Of a stretch of 64,000 nucleotides of DNA, positions 2,936 to 45,112 are shown in pieces. Under the pieces are notes generated by a model. It saw only the letters and a program-made list of their open reading frames with translations, was not told where the DNA came from and made no database searches. Both the position numbers and the translations under genes were made by a program. The DNA is from Blastochloris tepida (GTDB lineage: Bacteria > Pseudomonadota > Alphaproteobacteria > Rhizobiales > Xanthobacteraceae): positions 174,001 through 238,000 of the forward strand of contig NZ_AP018907.1 of the NCBI RefSeq assembly GCF_003966715.1. The letters are read 5' to 3'. Each line of letters begins with the position of its first letter. Within the stretch, counting starts at the first letter, position 1.

Positions 2936-3919
2936 TCACCCGATCTCGACCACCAGCCGGCCGCGGACGTGCCCGGCGAGGATGTCGCGGCCGGCTGCCT
3001 CGACATCCTTGAGCCCGATGGTGCGGGTCATGGCCGCGAGCTTGGCGCGGTCGAGGTCGGCGGCGAGCCGCGCCCACCCCTCGCGGCGGCGCGGGCCGGG
3101 GCACATCACCGAATCGATGCCGAGCAGCGACACGCCGCGCAGGATGAACGGCGCCACCGAGGTGGGGAGGTCCATGCCGGCGGCGAGCCCGCAGGCTGCC
3201 ACCGAACCGCCATAGCGGATCATCGACAGCATGTTGGCGAGCGGGGTGGAGCCGACGGTATCGATGCCGGCGGCCCAGCGCTCCTTGGCGAGCGGGCGGG
3301 GGGCGCCGGCGAGCTCCGCGCGGTCGATCACCTCGGCGGCGCCGAGCTCCTTGAGGTAGTCCGCCTCATTGAGGCGCCCAGTCGAGGCGACGACATGCCA
3401 GCCGAGCTTGGCGAGCAGCGCGATCGCCACCGAGCCGACGCCGCCGGCCGCCCCCGTCACGATCACCGGGCCGCGGTCGGGCGACAGCCGCTGGCGCTCC
3501 AGCGCCATCACGCTCAGCATGGCGGTGAAGCCGGCGGTGCCGATGGCCATAGCCTCGGCCGCGCTCAGGCTCTCGGGCAGCGGCACCAGCCAGTCGCCCT
3601 TGACGCGGGCCTTCTCGGCAAAGCCGCCGAGATGCGTCTCGCCGACGCCCCAGCCATTCAGAATCACCGCATTGCCAGGCTTCCAGTCCGGGTGCGAGGA
3701 GGCCTCGACCTCGCCGGCGAAGTCGATGCCGGGGATCATCGGCCAGCGCCGCACCACCGGCGCCTTGCCGGTCAGCGCCAGCCCGTCCTTGTAGTTCACC
3801 GTCGAGTGGGTGATGCGCACCGTCACGTCGCCATCCATCAGCTCGGCCTCGTCGAAATCGACGAGGCCGACCGTCTGGCCGCCATCGGTCTTGTCCACCC
3901 GGATTGCCTTGAAGGTCAT
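2936..3919 (-). CDS. MDR-family NADPH oxidoreductase (acrylyl-CoA reductase AcuI / YhdH type)
   Basis: A 327-residue zinc-independent medium-chain dehydrogenase/reductase. Visible hallmarks are an N-terminal GroES-like domain with [13 protein letters not shown] and PGIDFAGEV, and a Rossmann domain with [17 protein letters not shown] for NADPH binding. These match the AcuI/YhdH group, which reduces acryloyl-CoA to propionyl-CoA or acts as a quinone-oxidoreductase-like enzyme. The ATG at 3919 has GGGGAGG six bases upstream; a GTG two codons earlier lies inside that ribosome binding site and is less likely. It stands between mutL and an MFS transporter on the same strand, with no pathway partner nearby, so the in vivo substrate is not fixed. 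Confidence 0.85.
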
Positions 3920-5911: not shown

Positions 5912-5938
5912 CATATATGCTCAAATTGAGCATATATG
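5912..5938 (+). promoter_or_regulatory. 27-bp perfect palindrome, candidate NadQ operator of nadABC
   Basis: Two 13-bp arms, CATATATGCTCAA and TTGAGCATATATG, flank a single central A. The palindrome ends 16 bp before the nadA start codon and just before its ribosome site (AGGAGG at about 5941-5946), so a bound protein would block transcription initiation or early elongation. The NAD-pathway regulator NadQ (NUDIX-like sensor with winged helix), which in alphaproteobacteria controls nadABC, is encoded in this same window at 15669-16646. Assignment of NadQ to this site is inference from the pairing. Confidence 0.8.
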
Positions 5939-22009: not shown

Positions 22010-22149
22010 CCGGGCAAGGGCGCAAAGCGCCCGCGACCCGGGACCGTTTTCCGTTTCGCGTCGTCCCGGACGGCGCGGGATGCGCAGCATCCGGCGCCGA
22101 GCCGGGACCGTTTTCCGGAAGGGGGCCTTTTCCTGCGGACGATCCCGGG
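22010..22149. repeat. REP-like elements (family A), left flank of IS110 copy 1
   Basis: A run of two REP-like units after hisS: GTCGTCCCGGGCAAGGGCGC...GACCCGGGACCG, then GCGCCGAGCCGGGACCG-TTTTCCGGAAGG and CCTTTTCCTGCGGACGATCC, ending in CCCGG where the insertion sequence begins. The interrupted hairpin resumes at 23304 on the other side of the element. Confidence 0.75.
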
Positions 22150-22151
22150 TT

Positions 22152-22329
22152 GGAACGGCGAACTGTGCTTTGATGGGTGCACCGGCTCGGGGTGGCCACC
22201 CCGAGCCGGTGCGGGCGGCACGCCGTGTCCCGGGTGAGCCTTCGAGGCCGTCGCGAGCAGAAGCGGCCGTCCGTCCCAAGCCAACCCGAACAGTTGCACG
22301 GGGCTTTTGACCCCGCTTCCAAGCCTGGG
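22152..22329 (+). ncRNA. Candidate bridge-RNA region of IS110 copy 1
   Basis: The 178-bp non-coding left end of the element contains a 34-bp perfect palindrome (22179-22212; arms of 17 bases beginning GCACCGGCTCGGG) and then a conserved stretch up to the transposase start. In IS110-group elements such as IS621 the 5' non-coding end encodes a structured RNA that base-pairs with donor and target DNA. The position, size and structure fit; the call is inference and no loop-target pairing has been computed. Confidence 0.5.
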
Positions 22330-23298
22330 ATGCTTGCCATGCTGCCACACCCGACGCCGCTTGCCACCCACCTTGTGGGCATCGATGTCTCCAAGGACTG
22401 GCTCGACATCGCCTTCGACGACACCAAGGTCGAGCGCGTCGATAACACCCCCGCGGCTCTCCAGCGCTTGGCCAGGCGCCTGGTGAAGGCCGGGCTCACC
22501 ACCGCCGGCCTGGAGCCGACCGGCGGCTATGAACGCCTGGCGGTCGCGGTGCTGCGCGAGGCCGGCCTCACCGTGCTGCAGGTCGACAGCTGGCGCTGCC
22601 GCCAGTTCGCCAAGGCCTGCGGCCAGCGCGCCAAGAGCGATCCGCTCGACGCCCGCATCATCCGCGCCTTCATGCTGCATCACCCCTGCCGGCCGTTCCC
22701 GGAGCCCTCGCAAGCGCAGAGCGACCTGACCGCCTGGGTGCGCGAAATCACCCGCGCCGAGGCCGACATCCGCCGCCTCGAGAACCGCAAGGCCCACCCC
22801 ACCCTGGCGGCCATCACCGCCCGGCTCGATGCCGAAATCGCCGCCCTGCGCGAGACCGTCGCCGCGGCCGAACAGGCCATCGAGGCGTTGATCGCCGCCG
22901 ATCCGGCGATGGACGCCAAGGCCAAGATCATCACCTCGGTGCCGGGGATCGCCAACAAGACGGCCCGCGTCCTGCTCGCAGAAGCTCCCGAACTCGGCCG
23001 GTTCACCCCCCGCCAAGCCGGTGCCATCGGCGGCTGCGCACCCTATCGCAACGACAGCGGCAAAGCGCGGCGGCCGGCCCATATCGAGGCCGGACGCCGC
23101 GCGCTCAAGCGCGCCTGCTATCTCGCCGCCTTCGCCGCCATCCACTGGAACCCGTGGGCCAAACAGCTCTACGCCGACCTCAAAGCCCGCGGAAAACCCG
23201 CTAAGGTCGCCCTCATCGCCATCGCCAGAAAGCTCCTGACCATCCTCAACGCCATGATTCGAGACAACAAACCCTGGCGAGACCCCAAAACCGCATGA
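22330..23298 (+). CDS. IS110-family transposase (DEDD recombinase), copy 1
   Basis: A 322-residue transposase with the N-terminal RuvC-like DEDD domain (GIDVSKDWLDIAF with the first Asp, GLEPTGGYERL with Glu, KSDPLDARIIRAF with the two last Asp) and the C-terminal transposase_20 domain (SVPGIANKTARVLLAEAPELG, GGCAPYRNDSGKARRP with the conserved serine region). All catalytic residues are present. The ATG at 22330 is taken; a second ATG three codons later is equally possible. The protein differs from copy 2 only by A/V and L/F changes near the N-terminus. The antisense frame is open over its length but is not a gene. Confidence 0.92.
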   Translation: MLAMLPHPTPLATHLVGIDVSKDWLDIAFDDTKVERVDNTPAALQRLARRLVKAGLTTAGLEPTGGYERLAVAVLREAGLTVLQVDSWRCRQFAKACGQRAKSDPLDARIIRAFMLHHPCRPFPEPSQAQSDLTAWVREITRAEADIRRLENRKAHPTLAAITARLDAEIAALRETVAAAEQAIEALIAADPAMDAKAKIITSVPGIANKTARVLLAEAPELGRFTPRQAGAIGGCAPYRNDSGKARRPAHIEAGRRALKRACYLAAFAAIHWNPWAKQLYADLKARGKPAKVALIAIARKLLTILNAMIRDNKPWRDPKTA

Positions 23299-23303
23299 CA
23301 GTT

Positions 23304-23427
23304 GCTCTTCGCTTCGCTCCGCCCGGGATGACGAGGCACGGAGAAGGGCGATCCCGGCTTTCGCTTTCGCTCGGCCGGGATGACGAGGCACGGAGAAGGG
23401 CGACCCCGGGCCACGATCTCGCTCGCT
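23304..23427. repeat. REP-like elements (family A), right flank of IS110 copy 1
   Basis: The interrupted REP resumes as GCTTCGCTCC-GCCCGGGATGACGAGG. Then comes a direct repeat of GATGACGAGGCACGGAGAAG around another hairpin, CGATCCCGGC...GGCCGGGATGACG. The repeat cluster ends before the HAD hydrolase gene. Confidence 0.7.
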
Positions 23428-30619: not shown

Positions 30620-33600
30620 ATGACCAAGACTGACGCCGGCGCCTCCGACGCCAACACCGCTTCGACTGAAACCGGGTTCGACTATTCGCAGACCCTGTTC
30701 CTGCCGCAGACCGCGTTTCCGATGCGCGCCGGCCTGCCGCAGAAGGAGCCCGAGCTTCTGAAAGCCTGGGAGGAGGGCGACCTCTACGGCAAGCTGCGCC
30801 AGGCCGCGGCCGGCCGGCCGAAATTCGTGCTGCACGACGGCCCTCCCTACGCCAACGGCAACATCCACATCGGCCACGCGCTCAACAAGATCCTCAAGGA
30901 CGTGGTGACCAAGTCCCAGCAGATGCTGGGCTTCGACTCCAACTACGTGCCGGGCTGGGACTGCCACGGCCTGCCGATCGAGTGGAAGATCGAGGAGCAG
31001 TACCGCGCCAAGGGCAAGAACAAGGACGCGGTGCCGGTGGTGGAGTTCCGCAAGGAGTGCCGCACCTTCGCCGAGCATTGGCTTGACGTGCAGCGGGGCG
31101 AGTTCAAGCGCCTCGGCGTGATCGGCGACTGGGACCACCCGTATTCGACCATGAGCTTCCCGGCCGAGGCCCAGATCGCCCGCGAGATCATGAAATTCGC
31201 CATGACCGGCCAGCTCTATCGCGGCTCCAAGCCGGTGATGTGGAGCGTGGTCGAGAAGACGGCGCTGGCCGAGGCCGAGGTCGAGTACGAGGACCACGCG
31301 AGCGATACGGTGTGGGTGAAGTTTCCGGTTGTGAGGAAGGCCTACTTCGGGCGCACTACTCCCACGCCCGAGGATATCCTGCCGCGAGAAGACTTGCGCG
31401 AAGCCCACGTCGTCATCTGGACGACCACGCCCTGGACCATCCCCGGCAACCGGGCGATCAGTTTCTCGTCGCGCATCGCCTACGGCCTCTATGAGGTGAC
31501 CGAGGCGCCGGCCGACAATTGGGCCAAGGTTGGCGAAAAACTGATCCTGGCCGACAAGCTGGCGGAAGACGTGTTCAAGCAGGCGCGGGTCACCGCCTAC
31601 GCTCGCCGGGCCGACATGCCGGCAGAGGTGCTGAAGGATCTCGTTTGTGCTCATCCGCTGCAGGGGGTAGGCGGCGGCTATTACTTCGACGTCCCCCTGC
31701 TCGACGGCGACCATGTCACCGACGATACCGGCACCGGCTTCGTCCACACCGCGCCGGGCCACGGCCGCGAGGACTTCGAGATCTGGATGGCGAACAAGCG
31801 CGCTCTCGAAGCGCGCGGCATCGAGTCCACCATCCCCTACACCGTTGAGGCCGACGGCACCTACACCAAGGAGGCACCGGGTTTTGTCGGCAAGCACGTA
31901 ATCACCGCCAAGGGCGAGCAGGGCGACGCCAACAAGGCGGTGATCGCCGCGCTGACCGAGGCCGGCGCGCTGATCGCCCGCGGCAAGCTCAAGCACCAGT
32001 ACCCGCACTCCTGGCGCTCCAAGAAGCCGGTGATCTTCCGAAACACCCCGCAATGGTTCATCGCGCTGGACAAGCCGGTCGAGACGCTCGACGGCGCCAC
32101 ACTTCGCGAGGTGGCGCTGCGCTCGATCGCCGAGACCCGCTGGGTGCCGGCGGCCGGCGAGAACCGCATCAATGGCATGATCGCCAACCGCCCCGATTGG
32201 GTGGTGTCGCGCCAGCGCGCCTGGGGCGTGCCGATCACCGTGTTCGTCAACCGCGAGACGGCTGAAATCCTCAAGGACGAGCGGGTGAATGCCCGCATCG
32301 CCGACGCCTTCGCCAAGGAGGGTGCGGACGCCTGGTTCGCCGATGCCGACGGGTCGCGCTTCCTCGCGCCCGACCACGATCCGAAAGACTGGGAGAAGGT
32401 CACCGACGTGCTCGATGTGTGGTTCGATTCCGGCTCGACCCACGCCTATACGCTCGAAGACCCGGTGCATTTCCCGGGCCTCGCCGGCATCCGGAGGAAG
32501 CGCGACGGCGGCACCGACACCGTGATGTATCTGGAGGGCTCCGACCAGCACCGCGGCTGGTTCCACTCCTCGCTCTTGGAAAGCTGCGGCACGCGCGGCC
32601 GCGCCCCCTATGACGTGGTGCTGACCCACGGCTTCGTGCTGGACGAAGAGGGGCGCAAGATGTCGAAGTCGCTCGGCAACACGGTGGCGCCGCAGGACGT
32701 CATCAAGGCGTCGGGCGCCGATATCCTCAGGCTCTGGGTGTGTGCGTCGGACTATTCCGACGATCTGCGCATCGGCCCGGAGATCCTCAAGACCACCGCC
32801 GACACCTATCGCAAGCTGCGCAACACGCTGCGCTGGATGCTGGGCTCGCTCGCCCATTTCCGCGACGAGGACCGGGTGGCCTTCGCCGACATGCCCGAGC
32901 TCGAGCGGCTGATGCTGCACGAGCTCGCCCTGCTCGATCCCGTGGTGCGGCAGGCCTATGCCGACTTCGACTACAAGAAGATCCACGCGGCGCTGACCGC
33001 GTTCATGACCTCGGATCTCTCGGCGTTCTATTTCGACGTGCGCAAGGACGCGCTCTATTGCGAGCCGATCTCGTCGGTGAAGCGCAAGGCGGCGCTCACC
33101 GTCATCGACCGGCTGTTCCACGCGCTGGTGACGTGGCTGGCGCCGGTGCTGTCCTTCACCGCCGAGGAGGCGTGGCTGGCGCGCTACGGGTCCGGCTCGG
33201 TGCATCTGGAGCTGTTCCCGGCCATCCCGGCCGAGTGGCGCGACGAGGCGCTGGCTTCGAAGTGGGAGCAGATCCGCCGCGTCCGCCGCGTCGTCACCGG
33301 CGCGCTGGAGATCGAGCGGGCGAACAAGCGCATCGGATCGAGCCTGGAGGCGGCGCCGGTGGTGTTCTTCACTGAGGACGCGTTGCGGGCGGTGATCGGA
33401 AGCGTCGATTTCGCCGAGGTGTGCATCACCTCCGGCCTCAAGCTTGAGGCCGGGACCGGTCCGGCCGAGGCCTTCCGCCTTGCCGAGGTCGAGGGCGTTT
33501 CGGTGGTGCCGGCCAAGGCGGAGGGGAAGAAGTGCGCCCGCTCCTGGCGCATCACTGCCGACGTCGGCGCCGACCCGGCGTTTCCGGACCTCTCCTTGCG

Positions 33601-43819: not shown

Positions 43820-43928
43820 GTCGTCCCGGGCAAGCGGCTGAAAGCCGCGCGACCCGGGACCGTCTTCCGGAAGGGGGCCTATTTTCTGCGGACGGAAGGG
43901 GGCGTCATGTTCTGCGGACGATCCCGGG
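43820..43928. repeat. REP-like element (family A), left flank of IS110 copy 2
   Basis: CGTCGTCCCGGGCAAGCGGC...GCGCGACCCGGGACCG, then a linker containing GGAAGGGGGC and TCTGCGGACG. GGAAGGGGGC and TTCTGCGGACG occur twice here, a short local duplication absent at copy 1. The block ends with GATCCCGG at the IS edge. Confidence 0.75.
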
Positions 43929-43930
43929 TT

Positions 43931-44108
43931 GGAACGGCGAACTGTGCTTTGATGGGTGCACCGGCTCGGGGTGGCCACCCCGAGCCGGTGCGGGCGGCAC
44001 GCCGTATCCCGGGTGAGCCTTCGAGGCCGTCGCGAGCAGAAGCGGCCGTCCGTCCCAAGCCAACCCGAACAGTTGCACGGGGCTTTTGACCCCGCTTCCA
44101 AGCCTGGG
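43931..44108 (+). ncRNA. Candidate bridge-RNA region of IS110 copy 2
   Basis: The 178-bp non-coding left end repeats that of copy 1, including the 34-bp palindrome; I noticed a single change (GTATCCC instead of GTGTCCC) and one near the start codon. Conservation of a non-coding stretch in both copies is expected for a recent duplication and so is not independent support for function. Confidence 0.45.
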
Positions 44109-45077
44109 ATGCTTGTCATGCTGCCACACCCGACGCCGTTTGCCACCCACCTTGTGGGCATCGATGTCTCCAAGGACTGGCTCGACATCGCCTTCGACGA
44201 CACCAAGGTCGAGCGCGTCGATAACACCCCCGCGGCTCTCCAGCGCTTGGCCAGGCGCCTGGTGAAGGCCGGGCTCACCACCGCCGGCCTGGAGCCGACC
44301 GGCGGCTATGAACGCCTGGCGGTCGCGGTGCTGCGCGAGGCCGGCCTCACCGTGCTGCAGGTCGACAGCTGGCGCTGCCGCCAGTTCGCCAAGGCCTGCG
44401 GCCAGCGCGCCAAGAGCGATCCGCTCGACGCCCGCATCATCCGCGCCTTCATGCTGCATCACCCCTGCCGGCCGTTCCCGGAGCCCTCGCAAGCGCAGAG
44501 CGACCTGACCGCCTGGGTGCGCGAAATCACCCGCGCCGAGGCCGACATCCGCCGCCTGGAGAACCGCAAGGCCCACCCCACCCTGGCGGCCATCACCGCC
44601 CGGCTCGATGCCGAAATCGCCGCCCTGCGCGAGACCGTCGCCGCGGCCGAACAGGCCATCGAGGCGTTGATCGCCGCCGACCCGGCGATGGACGCCAAGG
44701 CCAAGATCATCACCTCGGTGCCGGGGATCGCCAACAAGACGGCCCGCGTCCTGCTCGCAGAAGCTCCCGAACTCGGCCGGTTCACCCCCCGCCAAGCCGG
44801 TGCCATCGGCGGCTGCGCACCCTATCGCAACGACAGCGGCAAAGCGCGGCGGCCGGCCCATATCGAGGCCGGACGCCGCGCGCTCAAGCGCGCCTGCTAT
44901 CTCGCCGCCTTCGCCGCCATCCACTGGAACCCGTGGGCCAAACAGCTCTACGCCGACCTCAAAGCCCGCGGAAAACCCGCCAAGGTCGCCCTCATCGCCA
45001 TCGCCAGAAAGCTCCTGACCATCCTCAACGCAATGATTCGAGACAACAAACCCTGGCGAGACCCCAAAACCGCATGA
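44109..45077 (+). CDS. IS110-family transposase (DEDD recombinase), copy 2
   Basis: A 322-residue transposase with all the DEDD residues and the C-terminal serine-containing domain described for copy 1. Amino-acid differences seen are a Val for Ala and a Phe for Leu close to the N-terminus; other base changes are silent. The ATG at 44109 is used as for copy 1. The frame is intact, so both copies could supply recombinase. Confidence 0.92.
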   Translation: MLVMLPHPTPFATHLVGIDVSKDWLDIAFDDTKVERVDNTPAALQRLARRLVKAGLTTAGLEPTGGYERLAVAVLREAGLTVLQVDSWRCRQFAKACGQRAKSDPLDARIIRAFMLHHPCRPFPEPSQAQSDLTAWVREITRAEADIRRLENRKAHPTLAAITARLDAEIAALRETVAAAEQAIEALIAADPAMDAKAKIITSVPGIANKTARVLLAEAPELGRFTPRQAGAIGGCAPYRNDSGKARRPAHIEAGRRALKRACYLAAFAAIHWNPWAKQLYADLKARGKPAKVALIAIARKLLTILNAMIRDNKPWRDPKTA

Positions 45078-45082
45078 CAGTT

Positions 45083-45112
45083 GCTCGCTGCGCTCGCCCG
45101 GGATGACGAGGC
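45083..45112. repeat. REP-like half-site, right flank of IS110 copy 2
   Basis: GCTCGCTGCGCTC-GCCCGGGATGACGAGG completes the hairpin interrupted by the insertion sequence. The next feature is the atp terminator. Confidence 0.7.

What the first reader, a model, noticed from the sequence alone, without database searches (positions are those of the whole stretch)
22150..22329. IS110 element with a palindromic non-coding left end: candidate bridge RNA
The IS has about 180 bp of non-coding sequence before the transposase, including a 34-bp perfect palindrome with no loop (22179-22212) and a second conserved stretch. In IS110-group elements the 5' non-coding end gives the bridge RNA that pairs with donor and target DNA (IS621 is the studied case). 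The element sits inside a REP-like hairpin, as IS621 does in E. coli, so the target-binding loop may be readable by comparing both insertion sites with the empty REP at 2821-2922.
Basis: partly seen in the sequence, partly recalled or inferred. Interest (0 to 1): 0.72.

Follow-up and report, generated by a model that had tools for sequence, protein, structure and literature searches.

The report
IS110 element with readable bridge RNA
This jumping DNA element appears to carry a small guide RNA whose letters match both its own ends and the repeated landing site that it uses in this genome, so it probably works like the known IS621 system; copies with a one-letter difference in the guide tend to sit in sites that differ in the same way.

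Summary
In detail: 22151-22338 is the 188-nt non-coding left end of an IS110-group element present in 22 copies (98.2-100% alike), with a perfect 34-bp palindrome at 22179-22212.

The bridge-RNA reading is supported. Four guides lie in order in the published IS621 register: left target 9 nt, left donor 8/8, right donor 7/7, right target 5/6 for GT-CGCG targets. The target-loop stem covaries among 46 left ends. The palindrome is no guide; it lies where relatives have the 5' hairpin and is longer than any found there.

Donor is ACAGTTG-CT-TGGAA, target (A/G)TCCCGG-GT-CGCG.

Beyond the finding, guide base 1 is polymorphic. All 18 A-guide copies sit in A sites although empty CCCGGGTC repeats are mostly G (16 A, 59 G). 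The only two occupied G sites carry G-guide copies; the sister genome, with one readable guide (G), shows 7 of 7 G sites.

Against: the window copy's own right target fits poorly, and no junction promoter stood out. Nothing was expressed or transposed. A new member of a known kind.

The parts
22142..22150 (+). Left target in the REP: ATCCCGG plus the target's core GT (22149-22150)
   Evidence: flank comparison of 22 copies; orthologous site empty in G002, with one G fewer
22151..22338 (+). Non-coding left end (188 nt), starting with right donor TGGAA (22151-22155)
   Evidence: start homologous to TGTAA of relatives
22179..22212 (+). [quoted passage not shown]
   Evidence: folds with z -6.28; relatives have shorter hairpins at this place
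22211..22274 (+). Target-binding loop: outer stem 22211-22219 with 22266-22274, inner stem-loop 22238-22248
   Evidence: Covariation over 46 aligned left ends; single-sequence fold z -1.14
22227..22235 (+). Left target guide GTCCCGGGT; first base is A in 18 of 22 copies, G in 4 including this one
22252..22257 (+). Right target guide CGCGAG (complement CTCGCG)
   Evidence: AG columns conserved in relatives
22274..22330 (+). Donor-binding loop: outer stem 22274-22278 with 22326-22330, stem-loop 22300-22314
   Evidence: single-sequence fold z -0.77, and it pairs part of the donor guide
22290..22297 (+). Left donor guide ACAGTTGC, identical to the right end 23298-23305
22317..22323 (+). Right donor guide TTCCAAG, complement of CTTGGAA (core plus 22151-22155)
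22339..23298 (+). IS110 recombinase, 319 aa
   Evidence: PF01548 and PF02371; D16, E59, D101, D104 and S240 invariant in 5 aligned proteins
23298..23306 (+). Left donor ACAGTTG plus donor core CT (23305-23306); overlaps the last base of the stop codon
   Evidence: relatives end ACAGTCG-CT
23307..23336 (+). Right half of the REP target, CTTCGCTTCGCTCC...
43919..45100 (+). Second copy in the window (L008, guide A): left core 43928-43929, left end 43930-44117, palindrome 43958-43991, recombinase 44118-45077, left donor 45077-45083, right core 45084-45085

Best explanation
This is an IS110-group insertion sequence that encodes its own bridge RNA in its 188-nt left end. The RNA (inferred span about 22179-22333) would start with the palindrome folded as a long 5' stem-loop, followed by a target-binding loop and a donor-binding loop. 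The donor loop recognises the joined ends of the excised circle (ACAGTTG-CT-TGGAA). The target loop recognises a REP arm ((A/G)TCCCGG-GT-CGCG). The recombinase joins the two at the core dinucleotide, leaving the target's core at the left junction and the donor's CT at the right. Shown from sequence: element boundaries, target, guide matches, structure covariation, association of the guide variant with its sites. Inferred by homology to IS621: transcription, RNP formation, circle intermediate, strand exchange.
For: Guides in order and in the IS621 register. Boundaries agree between empty REPs, orthologous empty sites and relatives. Covariation: 96.8% of cells paired against 84.0% in shuffles, 14 of 19 pairs changed on both sides. 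Catalytic residues invariant. Right core CT in 22 of 22 copies, left core as in REPs for 18 of 22 and two bases further on in 4. Guide-base variant matches sites beyond availability.
Against: No Rfam family matched this stretch at its gathering score. The four nucleotides after the core match the right target guide fully in 11 of 22 copies; the window copy's own right half (CTTC) fits poorly. Single-sequence folds of the two loops are not significant and the donor guide is partly paired in one. The best junction promoter candidates score no better than shuffles. Two sites reading CCCGGG(TC)TTGCTC without the element exist, one in G000 and one in G001. No expression data.
Confidence: 0.9

Rival explanations
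1. The left end is only a structured 5' untranslated region or DNA platform of the transposase, and the protein or the REP hairpin itself picks the target; the palindrome would be a regulator or a cruciform.
For: ISPpu9, another REP-targeting IS110 element, has a structured tnp 5' untranslated region and an antisense RNA (abstract of PMC8450116). The palindrome is by far the strongest fold here.
Against: Guide matches to both element ends and the target in the IS621 register, a target-loop stem conserved by compensatory change, and the match of guide variant to site variant.
Confidence: 0.05
2. Core TT with target GATCCCGGGTTGCTC; TTGC is part of the target.
For: TTGCTC follows the right end in 22 of 22 copies, and CCCGGGTTGCTC (G000) and CCCGGGTCTTGCTC (G001) each occur once without the element.
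Against: Empty REPs read CCCGGGTC in all but 3 listed rows (G000 and G002 rows only, lists cut). Orthologous sites in G002 lack TTGC. Relatives end ACAGTCG-CT. The right donor guide pairs with CTTGGAA, which needs C before TT.
Confidence: 0.03
3. The A/G pattern at base 1 reflects REP subtype, copy relatedness or history rather than guide pairing.
For: L007 and L016 share another variant (22955) and may be sister copies. A and G tend to occur in different REP subtypes. Within this genome alone, guide against site gives only p 0.026. In G002 only one guide, of a truncated copy, is readable.
Against: Flanks of L007 and L016 differ beyond the REP. With the right half held to GT-CGCG, A sites are 5 of 7 occupied and G sites 2 of 27 (empty G sites counted from listed rows only), p 0.0014. 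The sister genome shows the reverse preference.
Confidence: 0.25

Closest known systems
IS621 (E. coli, IS110 group) and its 177-nt bridge RNA (PMC11208160, PMC11208158)
   Same: DEDD and Tnp domains, RNA in the left end, order 5' hairpin - target loop - donor loop, guide lengths and register, donor core CT, insertion in REPs, a G guide base facing T in part of the targets
   Different: Other REP sequence; target core mostly GT; right donor guide pairs 7 nt without a gap (IS621: nine RNA bases with seven donor bases, discontiguous); 5' hairpin is a 17-bp loopless palindrome; 6-nt right non-coding end; no RNA data
IS110 relatives in Rhizobiales, such as the copies in Bradyrhizobium sp. CCGUVB4N (L164, L166, L169, L170, L172, L197)
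   Same: 37-39% recombinase identity in the best segment, same RNA architecture, left donor ACAGTCG, core CT
   Different: Target CTCATC-CT-GAGG; hairpin at the place of the palindrome short (6 bp with a loop in L170 and L197)
ISPpu9 and other REP-targeting IS110 elements (PMC8450116 abstract and passages; PMC1525189 abstract)
   Same: IS110 family, multiple copies at a fixed place in REPs, structured region upstream of tnp
   Different: In ISPpu9 an antisense RNA was described; here a sense bridge RNA is inferred; not compared by sequence
ISEc21 and ISMch6 (PMC11187229 section 12)
   Same: Upstream non-coding RNA guides the target; ISMch6 is a published case of natural redirection by changed guide bases
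   Different: There three bases between two elements; here one base among near-identical copies of one element

Membership tests
IS110 group of insertion sequences | PF01548 and PF02371 domains in one recombinase | tested here: met
IS110 group of insertion sequences | DEDD residues and conserved serine | tested here: met
   D16, E59, D101, D104, S240 invariant in 5 proteins; assignment to DEDD and catalytic serine by homology
IS110 group of insertion sequences | Left non-coding end longer than right, carrying the RNA | tested here: met
   188 nt against 6 nt
[quoted passage not shown]
   Covariation; 5' hairpin; single-sequence folds of the loops not significant
IS110 bridge RNA | Guides complementary to both strands of target and donor, core included | tested here: met
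   right target half fully matched in 11 of 22 copies
IS110 bridge RNA | Guide and target vary together | tested here: inconclusive
   One polymorphic base: p 0.026 within the genome, stronger with site availability and G002
IS110 bridge RNA | Promoter formed across the joined ends | tested here: inconclusive
   Best consensus score 7; 709 of 1000 shuffles reach 7 or more
IS110 bridge RNA | Transcript bound by the recombinase; RNA-dependent recombination | not testable with these tools
   No RNA or bench data
IS1111 group | Long right end carrying the RNA | tested here: not met
   Right non-coding end 6 nt; subterminal inverted repeats were not tested as such

The most novel reading that the evidence does not exclude
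The copies form a natural specificity experiment. One guide base (22227) splits one element into lineages using different REP subclasses: G guides can use A sites through G:T pairing, A guides are restricted to A sites. In addition, where the target offers two cores 2 nt apart (GT-CT-CGC), the left guide favours one and the right guide the other, and the conflict can leave a 2-bp loss: 5 of 9 insertions in REPs of that type lack a CT, one of them compared with an orthologous empty locus.
Probability: 0.35. Interest if true: 0.6.

Novelty: new member of a known kind. Interest (0 to 1): 0.42.

Why it matters
It adds a bridge RNA whose four guides, target and donor can be read from sequence, with 22 insertions in one genome and two empty loci in a sister genome as controls. 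The one-base guide polymorphism gives a within-genome view of how such elements could change target. The long palindrome and the 2-bp losses are specific, testable departures from IS621.

Tried and rejected
Rejected: the palindrome as a guide (no guide match falls in it, and it is placed like the 5' hairpins of relatives). Rejected: my own first boundary with core TT and target TTGCTC, written in notes 19 and 33 and overturned; the 'target nearly saturated' idea in note 33 fell with it. Rejected: the hit in G001 at 886434 as a remnant of the element; it lies in a coding sequence that I recalled as pdxJ. Note 44 gives RDG and RTG coordinates off by one or two bases; the report uses.

Led nowhere: Rfam, junction promoter, papers on Blastochloris insertion sequences (the genus was my guess, no call identifies the organism). 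Searches for bridge RNA, IS110 and seekRNA listed no title or abstract start that described this element; they cover only the held open library, and I did not open most of the listed papers.

Not resolved: whether the REPs of L004, L011, L012 and L017 had one or two CT units before insertion. For L008 the sister genome has three tandem units at the locus, all with two CT-type units, two with the same hairpin and one with another, so the exact ancestral unit is uncertain. L009 could be a gain of CT or a rare CTCT repeat. L011 and L012 were left out of the GT-CGCG count because their REP type elsewhere reads GT-CT-CGCG; counted in, occupied A sites would be 7. The lists were cut (no G001 row listed). 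A third Fisher test used a rough count and is not used.

Full report
What is there. The window lies in a 3.95-Mb single-contig genome, unnamed here. The transposase ORF 22339-23298 matches PF01548 and PF02371. The element occurs in 22 copies, 98.2-100% identical to the window copy, two of them in the window. The 34-bp perfect palindrome 22179-22212 is real; in 500 mononucleotide shuffles of the left end no loopless arm exceeded 10 bp, against 17 observed. It is unchanged in 21 of 22 copies; L052 has A-to-G in one arm, which would leave a G-U pair in RNA.

Where the element ends. But unoccupied REPs of the three genomes in this genus (77 matches in G000, 47 in G001, 203 in G002) read CCCGGGTC in all but three of the rows listed (rows of G002 and G000 only; the list was cut), and none of the listed rows reads TTGCTC. 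Against this, one TTGCTC site without the element exists in G000 (2834843) and one in G001 (1537952); I read them as possible excision scars, untested. In the sister genome G002 the locus of window copy 1 is empty and reads GATCCCGG-TCTTCGCTTCG, one G shorter. The locus of copy 2 is empty and holds three tandem REP units, two of them reading GATCCCGGGTCTCGCTGCG, the third GATCCCGGGTCTCGGCTTGCG. None of these holds TTGC. In all 14 related loci printed, the right end is ACAGTCG-CT and the left end starts CT-TGTAA. So the right end is ACAGTTG with core CT (23298-23306), the left end starts TGGAA (22151), and the right non-coding end has 6 nt.

The guides. With those boundaries the left end holds, in order, LTG GTCCCGGGT (22227-22235), RTG CGCGAG (22252-22257), LDG ACAGTTGC (22290-22297) and RDG TTCCAAG (22317-22323). 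In IS621, LTG pairs with target 1-9, RTG from 8, LDG with donor 1-8, RDG with donor 8-14 with gaps (PMC11208158 section 8). Here LDG pairs 8/8 and RDG 7/7. LTG pairs 9/9 where guide and site base 1 agree; the window copy itself has guide G on an A site, so 8 plus a G:T pair. RTG pairs 5/6 with GT-CGCG. The four bases after the core are CGCG in 11 of 22 copies, and the window copy's own (CTTC) fit poorly, so the right half is the weak part of the match. In 20,000 dinucleotide shuffles of 22213-22338 an LTG match occurred 35 times, LDG 57, RDG 332, the 5-nt RTG core 4,780, and all four in order never. The guides were defined after looking, so this gauges rarity and is no formal test.

Structure. 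The scan of genome contigs kept 80 of 236 related loci, 33-42% identical. A3 holds 45 of them plus the window; a script alignment held 64 sequences. For 19 named pairs on A3, 96.8% of cells pair against 84.0% in shuffles, 14 pairs change on both sides, and covariation is 0.435 against 0.176 in shuffles and at most 0.136 in slid versions. Single-sequence folds are weaker: target loop z -1.14, donor loop z -0.77 with part of LDG paired, whole left end z -1.86, palindrome z -6.28. At the place of the palindrome at least 12 relatives have a hairpin with arms of 6-13 bp and a loop (L215 13 bp; L209, L221, L232 11 bp). No arm of 17 bp was found in the 79 upstream stretches that are not masked, a few of which are too short to reach that place. 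In IS621 the 5' stem-loop is structurally conserved but diverse in sequence; its deletion reduced binding and slightly reduced recombination (passage of PMC11208158). I take the palindrome as an extreme form of it; why it is so long is unknown.

Junctions. In IS621 both top strands are cut after the core (PMC11208158 section 12), which predicts the target's core at the left junction and the donor's at the right. Observed right core: CT in 22 of 22. Left core: GT in 16, CT in L010 and TT in L051 (both also seen in unoccupied REPs as CCCGGCTC and CCCGGTTC), and CT two bases further on in L009, L013, L018 and L019. A promoter across the joined ends was not evident: the best candidates score 7, which 709 of 1000 shuffles reach or exceed.

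A natural guide variant. Position 22227, the first guide base, is A in 18 copies and G in L001, L004, L007 and L016. All 18 A-guide copies are in A sites; the G-guide copies are in two A and two G sites. A G guide can pair with both through G:T, as reported for IS621 at target position 4 (PMC11208160 section 9). Empty CCCGGGTC repeats number 16 A and 59 G here (20 A matches less 4 occupied), against 18 A and 2 G occupied CCCGGG sites (p 2e-8; occupied sites include CCCGGGTT left flanks). In G002 all 7 readable left flanks are G sites, against 108 A and 97 G empty (p 0.006); its only readable guide, in a truncated copy, is G. With the right half held to GT-CGCG, A sites are 5 occupied and 2 empty, G sites 2 occupied and 25 empty among listed rows (p 0.0014). 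Guide against site within this genome alone is weaker (p 0.026), and L007 and L016 may be sister copies.

Two-base losses. In REPs of the form GGGT-CT-CGC, nine insertions fall in three classes: crossover at GT (L003), at CT (L013, L018, L019), or left junction at GT and right junction at CT with one CT gone (L004, L008, L011, L012, L017). L008 is compared with the sister locus, where all three units have the longer form. Short REPs with a single CT were not found in this genome (0; 2 each in G001 and G002), while 9 two-CT ones are among the listed rows; p 0.03. LTG favours GT and RTG favours CT here, so a conflict of registers is my proposal; native REP variation remains possible, above all for the four copies without a sister locus. 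The IS621 study mentions off-target sites with insertions in the target.

Verdict. It works like, and by the features testable here is, an IS110-group element with a bridge RNA: a new member of a known kind. Papers seen: PMC11208160 (abstract, sections 5, 6, 7, 9, 12, passages), PMC11208158 (abstract, sections 7, 8, 12, passages), PMC11187229 (abstract, section 12), PMC8450116 (abstract, passages), PMC1525189 (abstract).

Noticed in passing
L149 / G000:C1:2834843-2834856 and L103 / G001:C1:1537952-1537966: Two REPs without the element read CCCGGGTTGCTC and CCCGGGTCTTGCTC; TTGC would fit a scar left by loss of the element.
   Followed up: partly
L017, position equivalent to window 22407: A one-base deletion shifts the recombinase frame in this copy (the protein match is split), so it was either moved in trans or broken later.
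   Followed up: no
L016, position equivalent to window 22163: L016 has A where the other 21 copies have C; the 7 left ends of G002 also have A there, so L016 may be closest to the sister-species lineage.
   Followed up: no
L147 / G002:C66:129300-130300: A truncated copy: the first 98 nt of the left end run directly into REP sequence.
   Followed up: no
L095-L097 (G001): A related element in 3 copies, about 35% identical in protein; by my reading it has core CT, and its left end shows no long palindrome.
   Followed up: partly
G030: Fourteen matches to a relative's C-terminal end in one genome, many at contig ends, which suggests another multi-copy element collapsed in assembly.
   Followed up: no
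L164, L166, L169, L170, L172, L197 (Bradyrhizobium sp. CCGUVB4N): Relatives sit in CTCATC-CT-GAGG repeats, and their RNAs carry CCTCAG, complementary to CTGAGG.
   Followed up: partly
window 33432-33453, 3843-3870, 5912-5938: Other strong hairpins in the window: a loopless 22-bp palindrome and two with 13-bp arms and 1-2-nt loops; nature not examined.
   Followed up: no
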